Origin: Theionarchaea archaeon
Lineage (GTDB): Archaea > Methanobacteriota_B > Thermococci > Methanofastidiosales > SZ-28-30
Assembly: GCA_018992685.1 (NCBI GenBank)
Contig: JACVGT010000013.1
Coordinates: 60,228 to 124,227 of the forward strand
Reading direction: 5' to 3'
DNA: 64,000 bases
A program made the position numbers and the translations under genes. The notes beneath the pieces were generated by a model that saw only the letters and a program-made list of their open reading frames with translations, searched no databases and was not told where the DNA came from. This document shows, piece by piece, positions 36,583-43,892 of the stretch (position 1 is its first letter; each line of letters begins with the position of its first letter).

Positions 36583-37251
36583 TCACAAGTAGTCAATAAT
36601 ACTTGCAATGATCCTGTTCTCTGCTTCAGCCATCTGTTCATAAACAGTGGCAGGCGACAATCCCAGTTCATCTGCCAGGTCTTTAATGCGCACTCTCTTG
36701 GGAATCTCGAAATAGCCCCTCATGTATGCTTTTTTCAGCGTACGCAGCTGTTTCAGGGAAAGCAATCCTTTCAGTTCTACGATATTGATGAAAAAGGAAT
36801 CATCTACATGTTCGAGAGGATGGACTGCAGTTATCTTCACGTCCCCCATATTCTGGAGCATTTCCATCACATTCTTCAGCTTATCAGAATCCGGTGCCAG
36901 GATTCTATAGTGTTTTGCTCCTTTGAAGGTGACGATAGGATTGGGAAGCAGGTAGTAGCATCCCCCTCTGGAGAGGATATCATGGACTTTATATCTGTTC
37001 TCACACCGGCACACACTCTGAGCAACAATTTCATTCTTGTCCTGAGAGAAGACATCCAGTGATACAATAGTATCGTCAGCCTTGGCCCTTTCAAGTGCTG
37101 CATGCAGATGGAGAGGGCTATCACATTCCCACCGAGAAAGGCCCTTTTCCTGATGAATAGAAAACACGGTCATGGTGATATCTGGGAATTCTTGTGAAAG
37201 CTTCTGGGCCCAGCACCTTTCTGGCTTGATCTGGAAGTTCACTTCTATCAT
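36583..37251 (-). CDS. Bat-type HTH-10 transcriptional regulator
   Basis: C-terminal LSLKQLRTLKKAYMRGYFEIPKRVRIKDLADELGLSPATVYEQMAEAENRII. Confidence 0.85.
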   Translation of the reverse strand: MIEVNFQIKPERCWAQKLSQEFPDITMTVFSIHQEKGLSRWECDSPLHLHAALERAKADDTIVSLDVFSQDKNEIVAQSVCRCENRYKVHDILSRGGCYYLLPNPIVTFKGAKHYRILAPDSDKLKNVMEMLQNMGDVKITAVHPLEHVDDSFFINIVELKGLLSLKQLRTLKKAYMRGYFEIPKRVRIKDLADELGLSPATVYEQMAEAENRIIASIIDYL

Positions 37252-37304
37252 GCACCTAATATATTAGGTCTACATAAAAGGATTGCCATAACGAGAGGTA
37301 TGGC

Positions 37305-40076
37305 ATGGTACAGAATGTAACCGCCAAACCTTTTTATAATCAAGAAAGAATGAGAAAACCCGCAACAGAAATCCTGTGGTGGTGTGAGATGTATAAAGGA
37401 TACCCTATCTGTCTCCAGGAAGATGATGAAACAGTTTCAGTATTGCGTCTGAAACTTGAACCACTGGACAAGATACGCCTACATGAAGAAGTTATTCCCG
37501 AGGCGTTTCGAAAAATCTGTAAGGCAATTTGTGAAGAGAAAGTTCTCCAGGATCCGATTTTTATTGATGAACAGTCGAAAGTCATACTGGATGGAATGCA
37601 CAGGGCAGCAGCCTTGCTTATGTTGCAGTCGGGAGAGTGTAAGAACCTCTTCTGGGACGAAACCAGTAAGCAATACACATATGTGCAGTGTGAAACCTGC
37701 CCTGGGAAATTCAGGAATCTGCAGTATATATTGTGCTGCTCCTTGGACTATGTTGAGAGCAAGGCAGTGACATTGAAAAAATGGTATCGAGGAGTTGATT
37801 TTCCTTTTGAGGAGGCAGTTGAGCTTCTTAGATCCAAGTACGACATGCGGGAACAGATGGGAGGAGATTTTTCTCTTCTGGAAGATGATGCTTTTGCCAT
37901 TTTGACTGACGGAAAAAAATATTTCTCTCTATCTGCTGATTTTGATACGATACTGGACAAATACATGTCCCTACGTGACGTGGAAACTTTGATTCGAGAA
38001 AAGGGTGGGCGGATCTCATACTGTGCTGATGAAGAAGCCTTTTCCTTGCTGGAGCAGAAGGAATTCTCGTTCTTGATGATCACTCCCACCATAACTCGTG
38101 GAGATGTGCAAACTTTTTCCAAGCCGGGATTTCCTGAAAAGGGAGAAGTATTTCCTCCAAAGTCCACCCGCCACCGTCTTGCAGTGCGGCCTCTTAAGAT
38201 TAATGTCCCCCTCCGGTTGCTGGAACGGGGAGATTACCAATTCAAACAGGAACAGCTCAAGGTGTTTTTGAGGAGAAAACGCAAACTGACTGTGACAGGT
38301 AGGCTGGAACAGTACCTGGAGAAGCATAAAATATTATTTGGAGAACCTGCAGAACTGAAAGAGCCTCTGGAAACTCCATACCTGTGGATATGTGAATTTC
38401 CTTTTGAATTCTATGAAATCAAGTATGATGTGGACCAATTCACTGAAGCAGTGTCCTCAGATCTGATACAGAACGGCATGGAATTGGCCTACTCTGCCCT
38501 GATCAGGGAGACCAATCGGCTGCTACTTATCGTTTCTGGTGTGAATGATGAGATAAAGACTGAACAGAGGCTAGTGTCCCTGATGAATTCCTACTTTCCA
38601 GACTATGAGATCAAGAATTTGTTTGGTAGCAGGGAGGACCGGTCCTTGGTGTGGATCATCCCTATGGAAGACTGCACACCCTCGAGAGCCTACTTTGAGC
38701 GAAACGAGAGGTTGCTGAGAAAGCTGGTGAGAATTCAGAGTGTGATACAATCTGGGAAAGGAGGATTCCAGCAAGTTCTCACCAAAGCAGACACTGGTAT
38801 CATGATGACATACAGTCCACGGGAACTCCTCCTGCTATTCGCCGTTCACGTCCTTGATGGCGCATCACGATGCAAGGTGTTCGAATATCTCCACGAAGAT
38901 ATTGATGACCACCAGAATGTCTTTTCTGGAATTGAGGATTTAAGAAAAAGAGGACTTCTATCTCTGCAAAATGGAGATTTAAGACTTACTGAGAAAGGTA
39001 CTGACGTCATTTCGAGAGCTCTGACTGTCACCAGAGAAATCACCAGCCTCCTGAGGGGATTATCCACCGACAAATTCGCAGGCTTTCTAAAAAAAATCGA
39101 TTCAAATGTAGCCCATGTCATAAAGCCTGATGGCAGAAAAGATGAGTTTCATATGGGGAGTATTATGGAATCACTGGTCTTCACAGATATGGGGTGGAGA
39201 AAGGTGGTTGATGCCATGGACAGGGTTGCAGAGGAGGTTGAAAGTGTTGATTTTGCCTCATCTGATGAGTTAACGAGCTTTGTGCAACGATACCTGGAAG
39301 AAGAATACCCCCTAACCAATGTACCTTTCAGGTATGATTATTTCGTTAATTCACGCAATCACATTTTTGTCAAGGAGACCAGAGTAACCTCTCTTTCCCG
39401 GAGCCACATAGAACAGGACATTGAAAGACTCATTCCAGAGTATCTCGAAATGAGTGCCAGCCAGAAATCGCAACTCTCCAACATGATTTATGAAGGAATG
39501 AGACTCCTGACTATTCCCCTCATAAAGGAACTGTACAATAAAGAACAGGTCGTATTTGAAAAATCCCTTCTCCACATAATTGAGGAATTTCTGGTGAATC
39601 AGGCAGTGCCAATTCTTCATAGAGTGAGAGATACCCCCCCACAGGCAGTGATTGCACTCCTGAAAGAGACCCTGGAAAAAGCACACACTCATCTTGAGAT
39701 GAGTGAAGATTTGCTGCAGAGGATGGATTTAGAATTTATGAAGTATTATCTTGCAGCCATGGATGAATTGACGGAATCTGCTTCAGTGGGGCTGGGAAAG
39801 GTTCCCTTCTTCAATGTGTTTGGCAGATTGAGCCAGTTGGCTCTCCTTGCACGAGAGCCTTCAGCCACGCTACAGTTCTTTGAGCCAGATAATGTCCATC
39901 AGTTCCTTGGTCATATGAGGGGTGTCTTCAGGAGATCAACGTCGCTGCTGGACCAGTGGAGAAACTCGTATTCGACGGAAGAGAGAGCAATCCTGGAAGA
40001 ATACAGAAAAGACTGGAAGAACCACCTGCGGGATGTCAAAGCATTGATCAGAAGGTGCAGGAGGGCTCTGCCATAG
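37305..40076 (+). CDS. Large protein with N-terminal ParB/SerK-like domain, internal wHTH-like segment and ATP-cone-like domain
   Basis: LEPLDKIRLHEEVIPEAFRKICKAICEEKVLQDPIFIDEQSKVILDGMHRAAALLML; SPRELLLLFAVHVL...LRKRGLLSLQNGDLRLTEKGTDVI; VIKPDGRKDEFHMGSIMESLVFTDMGWRKVVDAMDRVAEEVE. Confidence 0.6.
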   Translation: MVQNVTAKPFYNQERMRKPATEILWWCEMYKGYPICLQEDDETVSVLRLKLEPLDKIRLHEEVIPEAFRKICKAICEEKVLQDPIFIDEQSKVILDGMHRAAALLMLQSGECKNLFWDETSKQYTYVQCETCPGKFRNLQYILCCSLDYVESKAVTLKKWYRGVDFPFEEAVELLRSKYDMREQMGGDFSLLEDDAFAILTDGKKYFSLSADFDTILDKYMSLRDVETLIREKGGRISYCADEEAFSLLEQKEFSFLMITPTITRGDVQTFSKPGFPEKGEVFPPKSTRHRLAVRPLKINVPLRLLERGDYQFKQEQLKVFLRRKRKLTVTGRLEQYLEKHKILFGEPAELKEPLETPYLWICEFPFEFYEIKYDVDQFTEAVSSDLIQNGMELAYSALIRETNRLLLIVSGVNDEIKTEQRLVSLMNSYFPDYEIKNLFGSREDRSLVWIIPMEDCTPSRAYFERNERLLRKLVRIQSVIQSGKGGFQQVLTKADTGIMMTYSPRELLLLFAVHVLDGASRCKVFEYLHEDIDDHQNVFSGIEDLRKRGLLSLQNGDLRLTEKGTDVISRALTVTREITSLLRGLSTDKFAGFLKKIDSNVAHVIKPDGRKDEFHMGSIMESLVFTDMGWRKVVDAMDRVAEEVESVDFASSDELTSFVQRYLEEEYPLTNVPFRYDYFVNSRNHIFVKETRVTSLSRSHIEQDIERLIPEYLEMSASQKSQLSNMIYEGMRLLTIPLIKELYNKEQVVFEKSLLHIIEEFLVNQAVPILHRVRDTPPQAVIALLKETLEKAHTHLEMSEDLLQRMDLEFMKYYLAAMDELTESASVGLGKVPFFNVFGRLSQLALLAREPSATLQFFEPDNVHQFLGHMRGVFRRSTSLLDQWRNSYSTEERAILEEYRKDWKNHLRDVKALIRRCRRALP

Positions 40077-40321: not shown

Positions 40322-41749
40322 TTGAATTCTATGGGAAGGATCAGAATCCCGAGAGAGGTTGCTAACTTCCTGAAGCAGGAAGGAAGTCAAAGACTGATTG
40401 TGAAAGGTGATGCCGGAACAGGTAAGACAATTTTTGTGCTGTCATTGCTGCGATATCTTTCCCGCTACAGTCAGGGAGTCTATGTCTCCACTAGGGTAAC
40501 CCACAGAGATATCTATCGATATACTCCATGGGTGAGGGACAAGATTCAGAAAGACAACATCATTGACGCCACAAACCCCCAGGGCACCCTCTTATCCATG
40601 GAATCTGAGTTGAAGTACAACAGTGCGGGTGATTTCGTCAAAATCATTGCTGACAAATGCCGCTTGCTGGAAGTCCTGGACATGAAGTATGGCTGCGTAA
40701 TCATTGATTCGTGGGAATCTCTGGTGGCCAACATCCCCTACCCCCGTACTGACGGCGGAATTCAGCTGGAACGGACTTTGATTGATCTTTCCAAAGAAAT
40801 GAACGTCAACCTGATTCTTACGCTGGAAACCACCAGCAGTACCCGGCTTGATTACGTGGCTGACGGCGTGGTCTCCATGGAAAAAGAACTGATCAATGAA
40901 AACAGAGTTCGCACCATGCGATTGAAAAAGCTGAGAGGGGTCAAAATCACAAACCCGGTTTATCCTTTTACTTTGGACGGCGGGAAGTTTCAGGTCCTAG
41001 AACCTGAGCCCATATACTTTGAACCCGGGAAATCCAAACGGCTGAGGAAGATACGACCTTCCACGCCAGCTCATGTCTCTTCAGGAATCAAGGATTTTGA
41101 CAACCTTCTGGGAAATGGTCTCAAAAAAGGCAGCTTGAACCTTCTGGAGGTGGGAAGGGGATTGGGATTTTCTTACATCCCTTTCATCACCATTTCTGTA
41201 ATCAATGCATTGAATACTGGAATGAGCACCATTGTGGCAGTTCCCGAGGGAATCAATTTCTCCCTATTAAAGGAACGGCTCGTGGGGCCTTTCGTCAAGC
41301 CTGAGATGTACAGTAATGCACGGGTAATTGAGGAAACCTATGTGCCTGAGAATGAACTTCCCCCTGAAGTCACCCCGTTGAGAATTGCCAGAACGCACAA
41401 GGATTTCCTTGATCTCCTGGAAGCACTGAGAGAAAGGTTAGAGAAACCGACTCTGCAGATCATAGGTATGGACAATGTAGAACACAAATATGGATTCGCC
41501 AATATCCAAAGCGACCTCGGGAGAGTATCATCCCAGAACAGGAGTTCCCAAGACATTACAGTTCTGGTAGCCAAGGAAGGGCAGCAAATCACCCCACACC
41601 TGGGCCACATTTGTGATACCCACTGGAGATTGGAGACCATCAGCAAGTGTCTCTTCATGGAAGGGATCATACCGAAAACGGGACTGTATCACATTCATTT
41701 TTACAATTCAACCTCAGGTCCAGCAGCACGACTGACTCCTCTTCTCTGA
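40322..41749 (+). CDS. Double KaiC/RecA-like ATPase (GvpD-like)
   Basis: Walker A GDAGTGKT, Walker B-like YGCVIIDSWESL; second domain SSGIKDFDNLLGNGLKKGSLNLLEVGRGLGFS with degenerate P-loop. Confidence 0.65.
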   Translation: MNSMGRIRIPREVANFLKQEGSQRLIVKGDAGTGKTIFVLSLLRYLSRYSQGVYVSTRVTHRDIYRYTPWVRDKIQKDNIIDATNPQGTLLSMESELKYNSAGDFVKIIADKCRLLEVLDMKYGCVIIDSWESLVANIPYPRTDGGIQLERTLIDLSKEMNVNLILTLETTSSTRLDYVADGVVSMEKELINENRVRTMRLKKLRGVKITNPVYPFTLDGGKFQVLEPEPIYFEPGKSKRLRKIRPSTPAHVSSGIKDFDNLLGNGLKKGSLNLLEVGRGLGFSYIPFITISVINALNTGMSTIVAVPEGINFSLLKERLVGPFVKPEMYSNARVIEETYVPENELPPEVTPLRIARTHKDFLDLLEALRERLEKPTLQIIGMDNVEHKYGFANIQSDLGRVSSQNRSSQDITVLVAKEGQQITPHLGHICDTHWRLETISKCLFMEGIIPKTGLYHIHFYNSTSGPAARLTPLL

Positions 41750-41786: not shown

Positions 41787-43892
41787 ATGCCTGAAAAAGT
41801 CATCCCTCTGATACTTTTGTCTCTCCTGGCCCTAGCCGCTGCAGATGGAGTTTTTGAGCAAAAAGAAACCTATGATGTGAGCAAGCACATGTCAACACTG
41901 CTCAGCCTATGGGCGGGAGACATCGATGGTGACCGCGTAGCAGAAATACTGGCTGGAGGCATTGTCTATGAAGGGGCTATCTCAAAGGGTATTCTTGTCC
42001 AGATCAAGCGAAATGATATCTCTGTTCTGACAAAGATTCCCTCCACGTCCAGGACTGTCGTTGTCACCGTGTGTGAGGCTAATGGAGATGCTGCCCCAGA
42101 AATTGTTGTCGGAGCCAATGATTTGTATTTGTATAGCAAGGCAGGGAAACTGCTGACCACGAAGCCAGTGGGGGGAGATGTGACTGCTGTCCAAGCAATG
42201 GATATTGAAGGCTCCCCTCTCAATGATATCATTTGTGGGACTTCATCAGGCGATGTATTGTATCTCGTCAACCTGGAGATCGCGTATCAATTCTCTGTAA
42301 TAAAGTCAGTGACGCAGATTCTGAAAAGAGACAATGGGACCTATTATGTCATTGCAGGCCAGACCATTCACTGCATGAACACTGACGGAGAGAAATTATG
42401 GCTGCATAATGCCCAGGGCGAAGTGAACAGAGCCGCGGTGTACGACACGAATGGTGATTCTGTCAATGAGCTCATATTCATTGCGGGGCCCAGCATCTAT
42501 ACGCTTTCTTCTGATGGGAAGAAAGAGACTCTGCTCATGACTCCTTCCAACCACCCCCTTTCTCTGTTGGTGAGAGACATGACAGACGACGGCAAACCAG
42601 ACATGGCGGTTGCCGACAGCAAAGATAGTGTCGCTATCTATTCTAACCTGAAACAGGAGGTAGAATCCTTGTTCTTCAGACGAGAGGCAGGTGAAATCCC
42701 CATCCTGTTTGCTGCAGATGTTGTTGGAGACCAGAAGGTTGACCTGATCTATGGGGGGGTGAGCAAAATCCATGTCCTGGAGAATATCATACCTTCAGCC
42801 GAGTTGGTCACCAGGGGACAAGTGGTTCTCGACGAAGGAAAGGGACTCCTGGAGGAGAGGGAATATGAACGGGCAAAAGCCAAATTCGAAGAAGCAGAAA
42901 GAATCTTCTCTCTGGGAGGAGAAGAGAAACTGGCAGCAGAGTGTCAGAGATATATTCAGCAGATCGCAGCATTACTGAAAAGAAGATCAGAAGCAGAAAA
43001 GGCCATAAAAGAGGGGAACGATCTGTTTTCGGAGGAAGAATACGAGAAGGCCAAAATCCAGTTTGAACTGGCAGCTCAGGAATATGGACTCCTGGCGGAG
43101 GAGGACCCCTACTATCAACCTAACGCAGATGAGGCCCGGGCTCTTGTAAATCAATGTGATGAAGCTATAGCAGACCAGTATTTCAATGCTGGGATGGAGC
43201 GCCTTAGCAACAATCAGTATGATGAAGCCAGGGAGTATTTTGAGGCAGCAGAGGCTATTTATTCTCAACTTGGCAGCGAAAAGGCCAATTTGTGCCGTGA
43301 AAAGATTCAGGAAATCCAGGAAACCCTGGAAGAGAAACCCATAGAAAAGGACATGAGACCATTCATTTATGCGGGCTCGATACTCCTCATTGCTGCTATT
43401 GCGGGTCTGGTGATCGCTACCAGAAAGAAGGTTTCCACAAAGCTAGAAAAGGGTCGGCTGTACCTCTTGCTTGAATCACACCCCAAGAAGGGTCTCCAGT
43501 TGATCAAGGAGTACGGAAGAATAGGATATGAGGGGCTGGTAATTAGCAGACTTCCGCCCGAACAGATAAGAAAGAAAAAACTGAAGAAACAGAAAATACT
43601 GCAGTTTTCAAGCACCAGCAAAGAGGACAGCATCCCCCCTGATAATGTGGTCAACATCTTGCTGGGCATGAAGGAGTTCATGACCAGCAGGGACAATAGT
43701 ATCATATTGCTGGACAGTCTGGACTACCTCATCATTCAGAACTCTTTTGAAGATGCATTCAGCCTCATCCAGAAACTGGCGGAATCGGTGACTCTGTACA
43801 AGGGTATCGTGCTGGTGGTACTGAATCCCAAGAGTCTGGAAGAGAGAGAACTTGTTCTGCTGGAAGGAGAAATGGAGCTTCTGGAAATGTGA
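41787..43892 (+). CDS. Secreted/membrane protein: FG-GAP-like repeats, TPR-like region, TM helix, cytoplasmic DUF835-like domain
   Basis: Signal peptide; DIDGDRVAEILAGG, DTNGDSVNELIFIAG, DMTDDGKPDMAVAD; TM PFIYAGSILLIAAIAGLVIA; C-terminal SIILLDSLDYLIIQNSFEDAFSLIQKL..VLVVLNPKSLEERELVLLEGEM. Confidence 0.7.
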   Translation: MPEKVIPLILLSLLALAAADGVFEQKETYDVSKHMSTLLSLWAGDIDGDRVAEILAGGIVYEGAISKGILVQIKRNDISVLTKIPSTSRTVVVTVCEANGDAAPEIVVGANDLYLYSKAGKLLTTKPVGGDVTAVQAMDIEGSPLNDIICGTSSGDVLYLVNLEIAYQFSVIKSVTQILKRDNGTYYVIAGQTIHCMNTDGEKLWLHNAQGEVNRAAVYDTNGDSVNELIFIAGPSIYTLSSDGKKETLLMTPSNHPLSLLVRDMTDDGKPDMAVADSKDSVAIYSNLKQEVESLFFRREAGEIPILFAADVVGDQKVDLIYGGVSKIHVLENIIPSAELVTRGQVVLDEGKGLLEEREYERAKAKFEEAERIFSLGGEEKLAAECQRYIQQIAALLKRRSEAEKAIKEGNDLFSEEEYEKAKIQFELAAQEYGLLAEEDPYYQPNADEARALVNQCDEAIADQYFNAGMERLSNNQYDEAREYFEAAEAIYSQLGSEKANLCREKIQEIQETLEEKPIEKDMRPFIYAGSILLIAAIAGLVIATRKKVSTKLEKGRLYLLLESHPKKGLQLIKEYGRIGYEGLVISRLPPEQIRKKKLKKQKILQFSSTSKEDSIPPDNVVNILLGMKEFMTSRDNSIILLDSLDYLIIQNSFEDAFSLIQKLAESVTLYKGIVLVVLNPKSLEERELVLLEGEMELLEM

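What the first reader, a model, noticed from the sequence alone, without database searches (positions are those of the whole stretch)
37305..40076. 923-aa protein joining ParB/SerK-like, wHTH-like and ATP-cone-like segments
The N-terminus (LHEEVIPE...DPIFIDEQSKVILDGMHRAAAL) resembles ParB-fold SerK-type domains. The middle has a wHTH-like segment. VIKPDGRKDEFHMGSIMESLVF... resembles an ATP-cone, followed by a long helical region. I know of no protein with this arrangement. It could be a nucleotide-sensing regulator or enzyme. It is divergent from a Bat-type regulator across a 53-bp gap.
Basis: partly seen in the sequence, partly recalled or inferred. Interest (0 to 1): 0.7.

Follow-up and report, generated by a model that had tools for sequence, protein, structure and literature searches.

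The report
Archaeal serine-kinase domain fused to regulator
In this Theionarchaea genome one protein joins an apparently intact free-serine-kinase domain to a winged-helix and tandem ATP-cone module that Asgard archaea encode as a separate, adjacent gene, which suggests an uncharacterised way for archaea to couple serine/O-phosphoserine chemistry to regulation.

Summary
The ORF is real and under purifying selection.

N-terminus: a SerK/SbnI-type free-serine-kinase domain with every invariant motif kept, and the genome's only SerK homologue found. C-terminal half: a βαββαβ-like segment (low confidence), a MarR-type winged helix, an ATP-cone, a probable second degenerate ATP-cone, and a helical bundle.

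The key result: a distant homologue of the C-terminal half occurs in Asgard archaea as its own gene. In all three loci where the upstream region could be read, a SerK-like gene lies directly upstream and overlaps it. So the Theionarchaea protein is a fusion of an old operon. serA-like or aminotransferase genes lie nearby in three loci.

Best guess: a serine-kinase-coupled regulator. Kinase chemistry is likely; DNA binding is unproven, and the winged helix is acidic. The architecture is not among those named in a 2025 survey of ParB-fold fusions. I class it as a new variant of a known kind.

The parts
37305..40076 (+). ORF, 923 aa: SerK-like domain + segment of uncertain fold + wHTH + tandem ATP-cone + helical tail
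37389..40076 (+). more likely coding region, starting at M29 (895 aa)
   Evidence: conserved TATA-like element upstream; codons 16-28 lack synonymous changes; start lines up with Asgard SerK-like proteins
37326..37341 (+). TATA/BRE-like element AAACCTTTTTATAATC, identical in the orthologue
37437..38228 (+). SerK/SbnI-type ParB-fold domain, residues 45-308
37482..37487 (+). H60-E61, aligned to SerK H29-E30 (E30 is the residue changed to Q in PDB 5x0j)
37590..37604 (+). D96-G-M-H99-R100 motif, aligned to SerK D69-G-H-H72-R73
37629..37736 (+). insertion of about 30 aa with C112, C129xxC132 and C144, conserved in the orthologue and absent from other SerKs
38154..38174 (+). PPKSTRH motif (K286, T288, R289, H290), aligned to SerK K221-T223-R224-H225
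38229..38339 (+). C-terminal extension of the SerK domain shared only with the Asgard SerK-like proteins (residues 309-345)
38376..38663 (+). probable ferredoxin-like (beta-alpha-beta-beta-alpha-beta) segment, residues 358-453, low confidence
   Evidence: secondary structure; not reproduced by the second model; Asgard homologues show a similar residue pattern
38814..38990 (+). MarR-type winged helix, residues 504-562
39111..39362 (+). ATP-cone 1, residues 603-686; fold kept, K62-equivalent is S619
39363..39629 (+). probable degenerate second ATP-cone, residues 687-775
   Evidence: collinear match to archaeal NrdD tandem cones, model topology and top Foldseek hit 5im3; not significant alone
39630..40073 (+). 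C-terminal helical bundle, residues 776-923, no known relative
36583..37251 (-). divergent HTH_10 (Bat-type) regulator, also divergent in the second Theionarchaea genome

Best explanation
The protein is a fusion of two proteins that Asgard archaea encode as an overlapping gene pair: a SerK-type free-serine kinase and a wHTH / tandem ATP-cone / helical-bundle regulator. The N-terminal half most likely phosphorylates free serine to O-phosphoserine (Sep), or reports serine/Sep and ADP/ATP by binding them. The C-terminal half most likely turns that state into regulation, either by oligomerising through the cones to switch the kinase or by placing the winged helix on DNA, in the manner of dual enzyme-regulators such as SbnI. 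Shown here: homology, intact SerK motifs, the fold calls, the conserved gene pairing, and a serA or aminotransferase gene near three of the Asgard loci. Inferred: kinase activity, DNA binding, oligomerisation, and the direction of control.
For: SerK identity and a strong match to the Asgard SerK-like protein (108 bits), which itself matches solved SerK over its length (2e-19). All invariant SerK positions are kept. It is the only SerK homologue found in this genome, while all 20 genomes in that search that are at least 90% complete have one. The distant C-terminal homologue in Asgard lies directly after a SerK-like gene, overlapping, in 3 of 3 readable loci. Nearby are serA-like genes (two loci) and a class V aminotransferase (one locus), which matches the SerK-SerA-aminotransferase route proposed for T. 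kodakarensis and the serK/serA adjacency in Desulfurococcus kamchatkensis (PMC5120207). The genome has SepCysS and a full-length SepRS-like match, so it can use Sep. wHTH and ATP-cone by two models and by profiles. Purifying selection in every segment from residue 29 onward.
Against: No activity, ligand or DNA site was shown. The SerK model's curated cut-off is far from met (46 vs 380 bits). The wHTH segment is acidic (net -3, pI 5.5) and has the highest dN of the segments, which is unusual for a DNA-binding domain. The cone's nucleotide-binding residues are eroded. SepRS and SepCysS are not found in the sister genome G001 (88% complete) or in four of the six Asgard genomes, so Sep-tRNA use is not the shared reason for the pairing. 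Serine-pathway neighbours do not occur at the window locus itself.
Confidence: 0.5

Rival explanations
1. A purely metabolic enzyme: a serine kinase whose activity is controlled allosterically by an appended oligomerisation module (tandem cones as in ribonucleotide reductase), the wHTH serving as a dimerisation surface and not binding DNA.
For: Intact SerK motifs; tandem cones align collinearly with those of archaeal NrdD and the second model's top PDB match is a class I RNR; acidic wHTH; serine-pathway neighbours in Asgard.
Against: Nucleotide-binding residues of the cone are lost, so RNR-style ATP/dATP control is not expected; a wHTH-cone paralogue without SerK in the same genome suggests the module has a role of its own.
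Confidence: 0.3
2. The ParB-fold domain is no longer a kinase but an NTP/CTP-gated switch, as in ParB, working with the wHTH as a DNA clamp or nucleotide-gated regulator.
For: The 2025 survey reports an archaeal SerK-like protein that bound CTP rather than ATP (PMC12704722); SerK and ParB share the fold.
Against: All SerK-invariant motifs, including the E30 and KTTRH equivalents, are kept; the window SerK segment gives no Pfam ParB_N match while SerK and SbnI models match; Asgard neighbours are serine-pathway genes.
Confidence: 0.12
3. Chance or artefact: two unrelated frames joined by assembly or misreading, with domain resemblances by chance.
For: Weak single-sequence scores for the cone (E 0.076).
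Against: Same uninterrupted fusion in a second genome; dN/dS about 0.09 over the shared frame; Asgard operon of the same two halves; two models give the same fold matches.
Confidence: 0.02

Closest known systems
SerK (TK0378), ADP-dependent free serine kinase, Thermococcus kodakarensis
   Same: ParB-type fold; H29-E30, D69-G-x-H72-R73, W102, K221, T223-R224-H225 all conserved; genomic link to serine-pathway genes in the Asgard versions
   Different: Stand-alone about 240 aa; here fused to about 615 aa of other domains, with a Cys-containing insertion and a C-terminal extension; 46 vs the 380-bit cut-off
SbnI, bifunctional transcriptional regulator / O-phosphoserine synthase of staphylococci
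   Same: NCBIfam match over the DGxHR region; its NCBIfam name combines serine kinase and regulator
   Different: No wHTH or ATP-cone partner of this kind; about 250 aa; different pathway (staphyloferrin B)
NrdR (Zn-ribbon + ATP-cone transcriptional repressor)
   Same: ATP-cone superposes at 2.5-2.8 A over 88-89 columns; DNA-binding-type domain placed before a cone
   Different: No Zn-ribbon; wHTH in its place; K50/K62 nucleotide contacts not both kept; second cone and helical tail
Tandem ATP-cones of archaeal NrdD and of P. aeruginosa NrdA (5im3)
   Same: Family profile aligns collinearly over both NrdD cones; 5im3 is the top Foldseek hit
   Different: Not attached to a reductase; nucleotide residues eroded; second cone degenerate
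ParB-CTPase fold fusion proteins surveyed in PNAS 2025 (PMC12704722)
   Same: ParB-fold domain fused to lineage-specific domains in archaea
   Different: Fusions named in the text are CBS, ASCH, MT-A70 and HTH; 'ATP-cone' does not occur in the main text

Membership tests
SerK free serine kinase | SerK sequence similarity and invariant active-site motifs | tested here: met
   NF053625 E 2.8e-12; all invariant SerK positions kept in window, orthologue and the two full-length Asgard SerK-likes
SerK free serine kinase | score above NCBIfam equivalog cut-off (380 bits) | tested here: not met
   46 bits; Asgard SerK-likes 93 and 83 bits; stand-alone relatives in the window's own order also fall below
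SerK free serine kinase | ADP-dependent phosphorylation of free serine | not testable with these tools
   needs enzyme assay
ATP-cone (PF03477) | profile score above gathering cut-off | tested here: inconclusive
   window 14 bits, orthologue 16.1, G224 homologue 26.6 vs 25.8; profile-profile 97% probability
ATP-cone (PF03477) | ATP-cone fold | tested here: met
   Foldseek NrdR cone prob 1.00, rmsd 2.5-2.8 A, in two models
ATP-cone (PF03477) | nucleotide-binding residues (NrdR V48, K50, E56, K62; PMC9110341) | tested here: not met
   no family member keeps K/R at K50 and K62 with the exception of none; 29 of 29 control cones keep both
NrdR | Zn-ribbon followed by ATP-cone | tested here: not met
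   a wHTH, not a Zn-ribbon, precedes the cone
MarR-type winged helix | winged-helix fold | tested here: met
   profile hit 2x4h E 1.8e-5
MarR-type winged helix | DNA binding | not testable with these tools
   acidic segment, pI 5.5, argues for caution
Canonical ParB | ParB_N domain match with HTH and parA/parS context | tested here: not met
   no Pfam ParB match in window protein; no ParA gene among the neighbours scanned
Tandem ATP-cone | two consecutive cones | tested here: inconclusive
   collinear hits to NrdD tandem cones and matching topology, but cone 2 alone gives 2-3% probability

The most novel reading that the evidence does not exclude
A widespread archaeal (Asgard to Theionarchaea) family of serine-kinase-coupled transcription regulators in which tandem ATP-cones have lost nucleotide binding and been reused, for example as an oligomerisation switch or a sensor of serine/O-phosphoserine, so that the enzyme directly controls serine and cysteine genes.
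Probability: 0.22. Interest if true: 0.75.

Novelty: new variant of a known kind. Interest (0 to 1): 0.5.

Why it matters
If right, it extends free-serine kinases from a metabolic enzyme of a few hyperthermophiles to a regulatory system of Asgard and Theionarchaea. It gives ATP-cones a role outside ribonucleotide reduction and NrdR, and it supplies a natural fusion that predicts which two Asgard proteins act together. The prediction can be tested directly with a recombinant protein.

Tried and rejected
Chance or assembly artefact: rejected by the orthologue and selection. Viral or defence origin: no relative in two viral-contig scans, no PHROG match for the window protein or the Asgard C-terminal protein, and only weak ParB-like PHROG matches for the Asgard SerK-like protein; no PADLOC match. 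HemN_C and ANAPC2 weak matches: below cut-offs and unsupported. A whole-length alignment with separate Asgard halves misplaced fragments, so it was not folded; the C-terminal half and the Asgard protein were folded instead, and the SerK half was not folded. Second cone tested by sequence alone: not significant. Palindrome 37254-37269 as operator: two mismatches in the orthologue, so not pursued. Sep-tRNA (SepRS/SepCysS) as the common reason for the pairing: absent from several carriers. SbnI primary paper not held. Weak C-terminal hits in G195, G217 and G002 were not used as family members.

Full report
Observation. The 923-aa ORF lies at 37305-40076 on the + strand, 53 bp from the divergent Bat-type (HTH_10, PF04967) gene at 36583-37251. 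The window lies in a Theionarchaea genome: its only held congener, G001, matches the record 'Theionarchaea archaeon isolate SZ_28-30'. The orthologue there is full length, uninterrupted and 81% identical. From M16 on, dN is 0.106 and dS 1.19, with dN/dS below 0.2 in every segment from residue 29 onward. The start codon is probably M29 (37389). A TATA-like AAACCTTTTTATAATC at 37326-37341 is identical in both genomes, codons 16-28 show no synonymous change, and Asgard relatives begin at about the same place.

N-terminal domain. Residues about 45-308 match SerK (NF053625, 2.8e-12) and SbnI (7.5e-9) and solved SbnI and SerK chains. Every position invariant among the SerK homologues aligned is kept, including H60, E61 (SerK E30, the residue changed in PDB 5x0j), D96, G97, H99, R100, W160, K286, T288, R289 and H290. 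It is the only SerK homologue found in this genome, whereas all 20 genomes at least 90% complete in that search have one. An insertion of about 30 residues with C112, C129xxC132 and C144 is specific to the two Theionarchaea. This half was not folded here; its fold rests on sequence homology to solved SerK.

C-terminal half. Searches of 115 genomes of the phylum found a full-length match to the C-terminal half only in the two Theionarchaea. A wider search found a distant homologue in G224 (1.3e-11), and a profile search of that phylum (228 genomes) added G568, G558, G559, G561 and G554. Five of those six genomes match the ESCRT-II family EAP30, four above its cut-off, while no control genome exceeds it, so the phylum is taken to be Asgard; genome names are not shown by the tool. 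In G224, G558 and G561, the only loci where the upstream region is present, a SerK-like gene ends inside the start of the homologue. The G224 SerK-like protein aligns with window residues 41-345 at 108 bits, including a C-terminal extension that plain SerKs lack. The window protein is therefore a fusion of a conserved two-gene unit.

Domains of the C-terminal half. Two AlphaFold models of moderate confidence (mean pLDDT 65 and 64) were made from shallow alignments of eight sequences. Both show a winged helix matching MarR-family structures and an ATP-cone matching NrdR (prob 1.00, 2.5-2.8 A over 88-89 columns). Sequence agrees: the wHTH hits PDB 2x4h at 1.8e-5, the cone passes Pfam's cut-off in G224 and aligns with known cones at 97% probability, and the family profile picks up NrdD cones across archaea. 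Those NrdDs have two Pfam cones and the family profile runs collinearly over both; the top Foldseek hit of both models is P. aeruginosa NrdA 5im3, which from general knowledge carries tandem cones. A second, degenerate cone is therefore probable, but cone 2 alone is not significant. The helical tail has no recognised relative.

Nucleotide sensing. NrdR needs V48, K50, E56 and K62 (PMC9110341). At the K50 and K62 positions all 29 control cones have K or R; none of the eight family members has both (window: K607 but S619; Asgard: L, G, H or D at the first). The SerK domain should still bind a nucleotide.

Function. Serine-pathway genes lie near the Asgard unit: a serA-like gene in G558 and G559 (TIGR01327 about 313 bits, below its cut-off) and a class V aminotransferase after the unit in G561. 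Makino et al. proposed that SerK, SerA and phosphoserine aminotransferase work together and noted serK next to a 3-phosphoglycerate dehydrogenase gene in Desulfurococcus kamchatkensis (PMC5120207). G000, G224 and G568 have SepCysS and SepRS matches (in G000 SepRS is full length but below cut-off), so they can probably use O-phosphoserine for Cys-tRNA; the other four Asgard carriers and G001 do not show them. The best-supported account is a serine kinase joined to a regulator. Whether the regulator acts on DNA or on the kinase is open: the wHTH is acidic, and a wHTH-cone paralogue without SerK exists in the same genome.

Known or new. A 2025 survey of ParB-fold fusions (PMC12704722) names CBS, ASCH, MT-A70 and HTH partners in archaea; 'ATP-cone' does not occur in its main text (its supplements were not searched). 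Other literature searches found no such fusion. The parts are known kinds and the combination and operon are new, hence 'new variant of a known kind'.

Noticed in passing
L093:1826-3352 (+), same genome (G000:C3 about 230.3-231.9 kb): A paralogue of about 508 aa with a wHTH, an ATP-cone-like region and a helical tail but no SerK domain, so the C-terminal module also exists on its own in this genome.
   Followed up: partly
37629-37736: Cysteine-containing insertion in the SerK domain (C112, C129xxC132, C144), conserved in the orthologue; could bind metal or be redox-active.
   Followed up: no
37254-37269: Perfect 16-bp palindrome ACCTAATATATTAGGT directly upstream of the HTH_10 gene; two mismatches in the orthologue.
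   Followed up: partly
G010:C32, G018:C46, G020:C25: Pairs of neighbouring small ATP-cone genes (about 93-100 aa and about 190-207 aa) in relatives of the same order.
   Followed up: no
L115-L117: 180-220-aa Asgard proteins with an N-terminal ATP-cone that keeps the K50/K62 residues and a further C-terminal part of unknown function.
   Followed up: no
40322-41749: GvpD/KaiC-like P-loop protein next to a beta-propeller/DUF835 protein at 41787-43892; order conserved in the second Theionarchaea genome.
   Followed up: no
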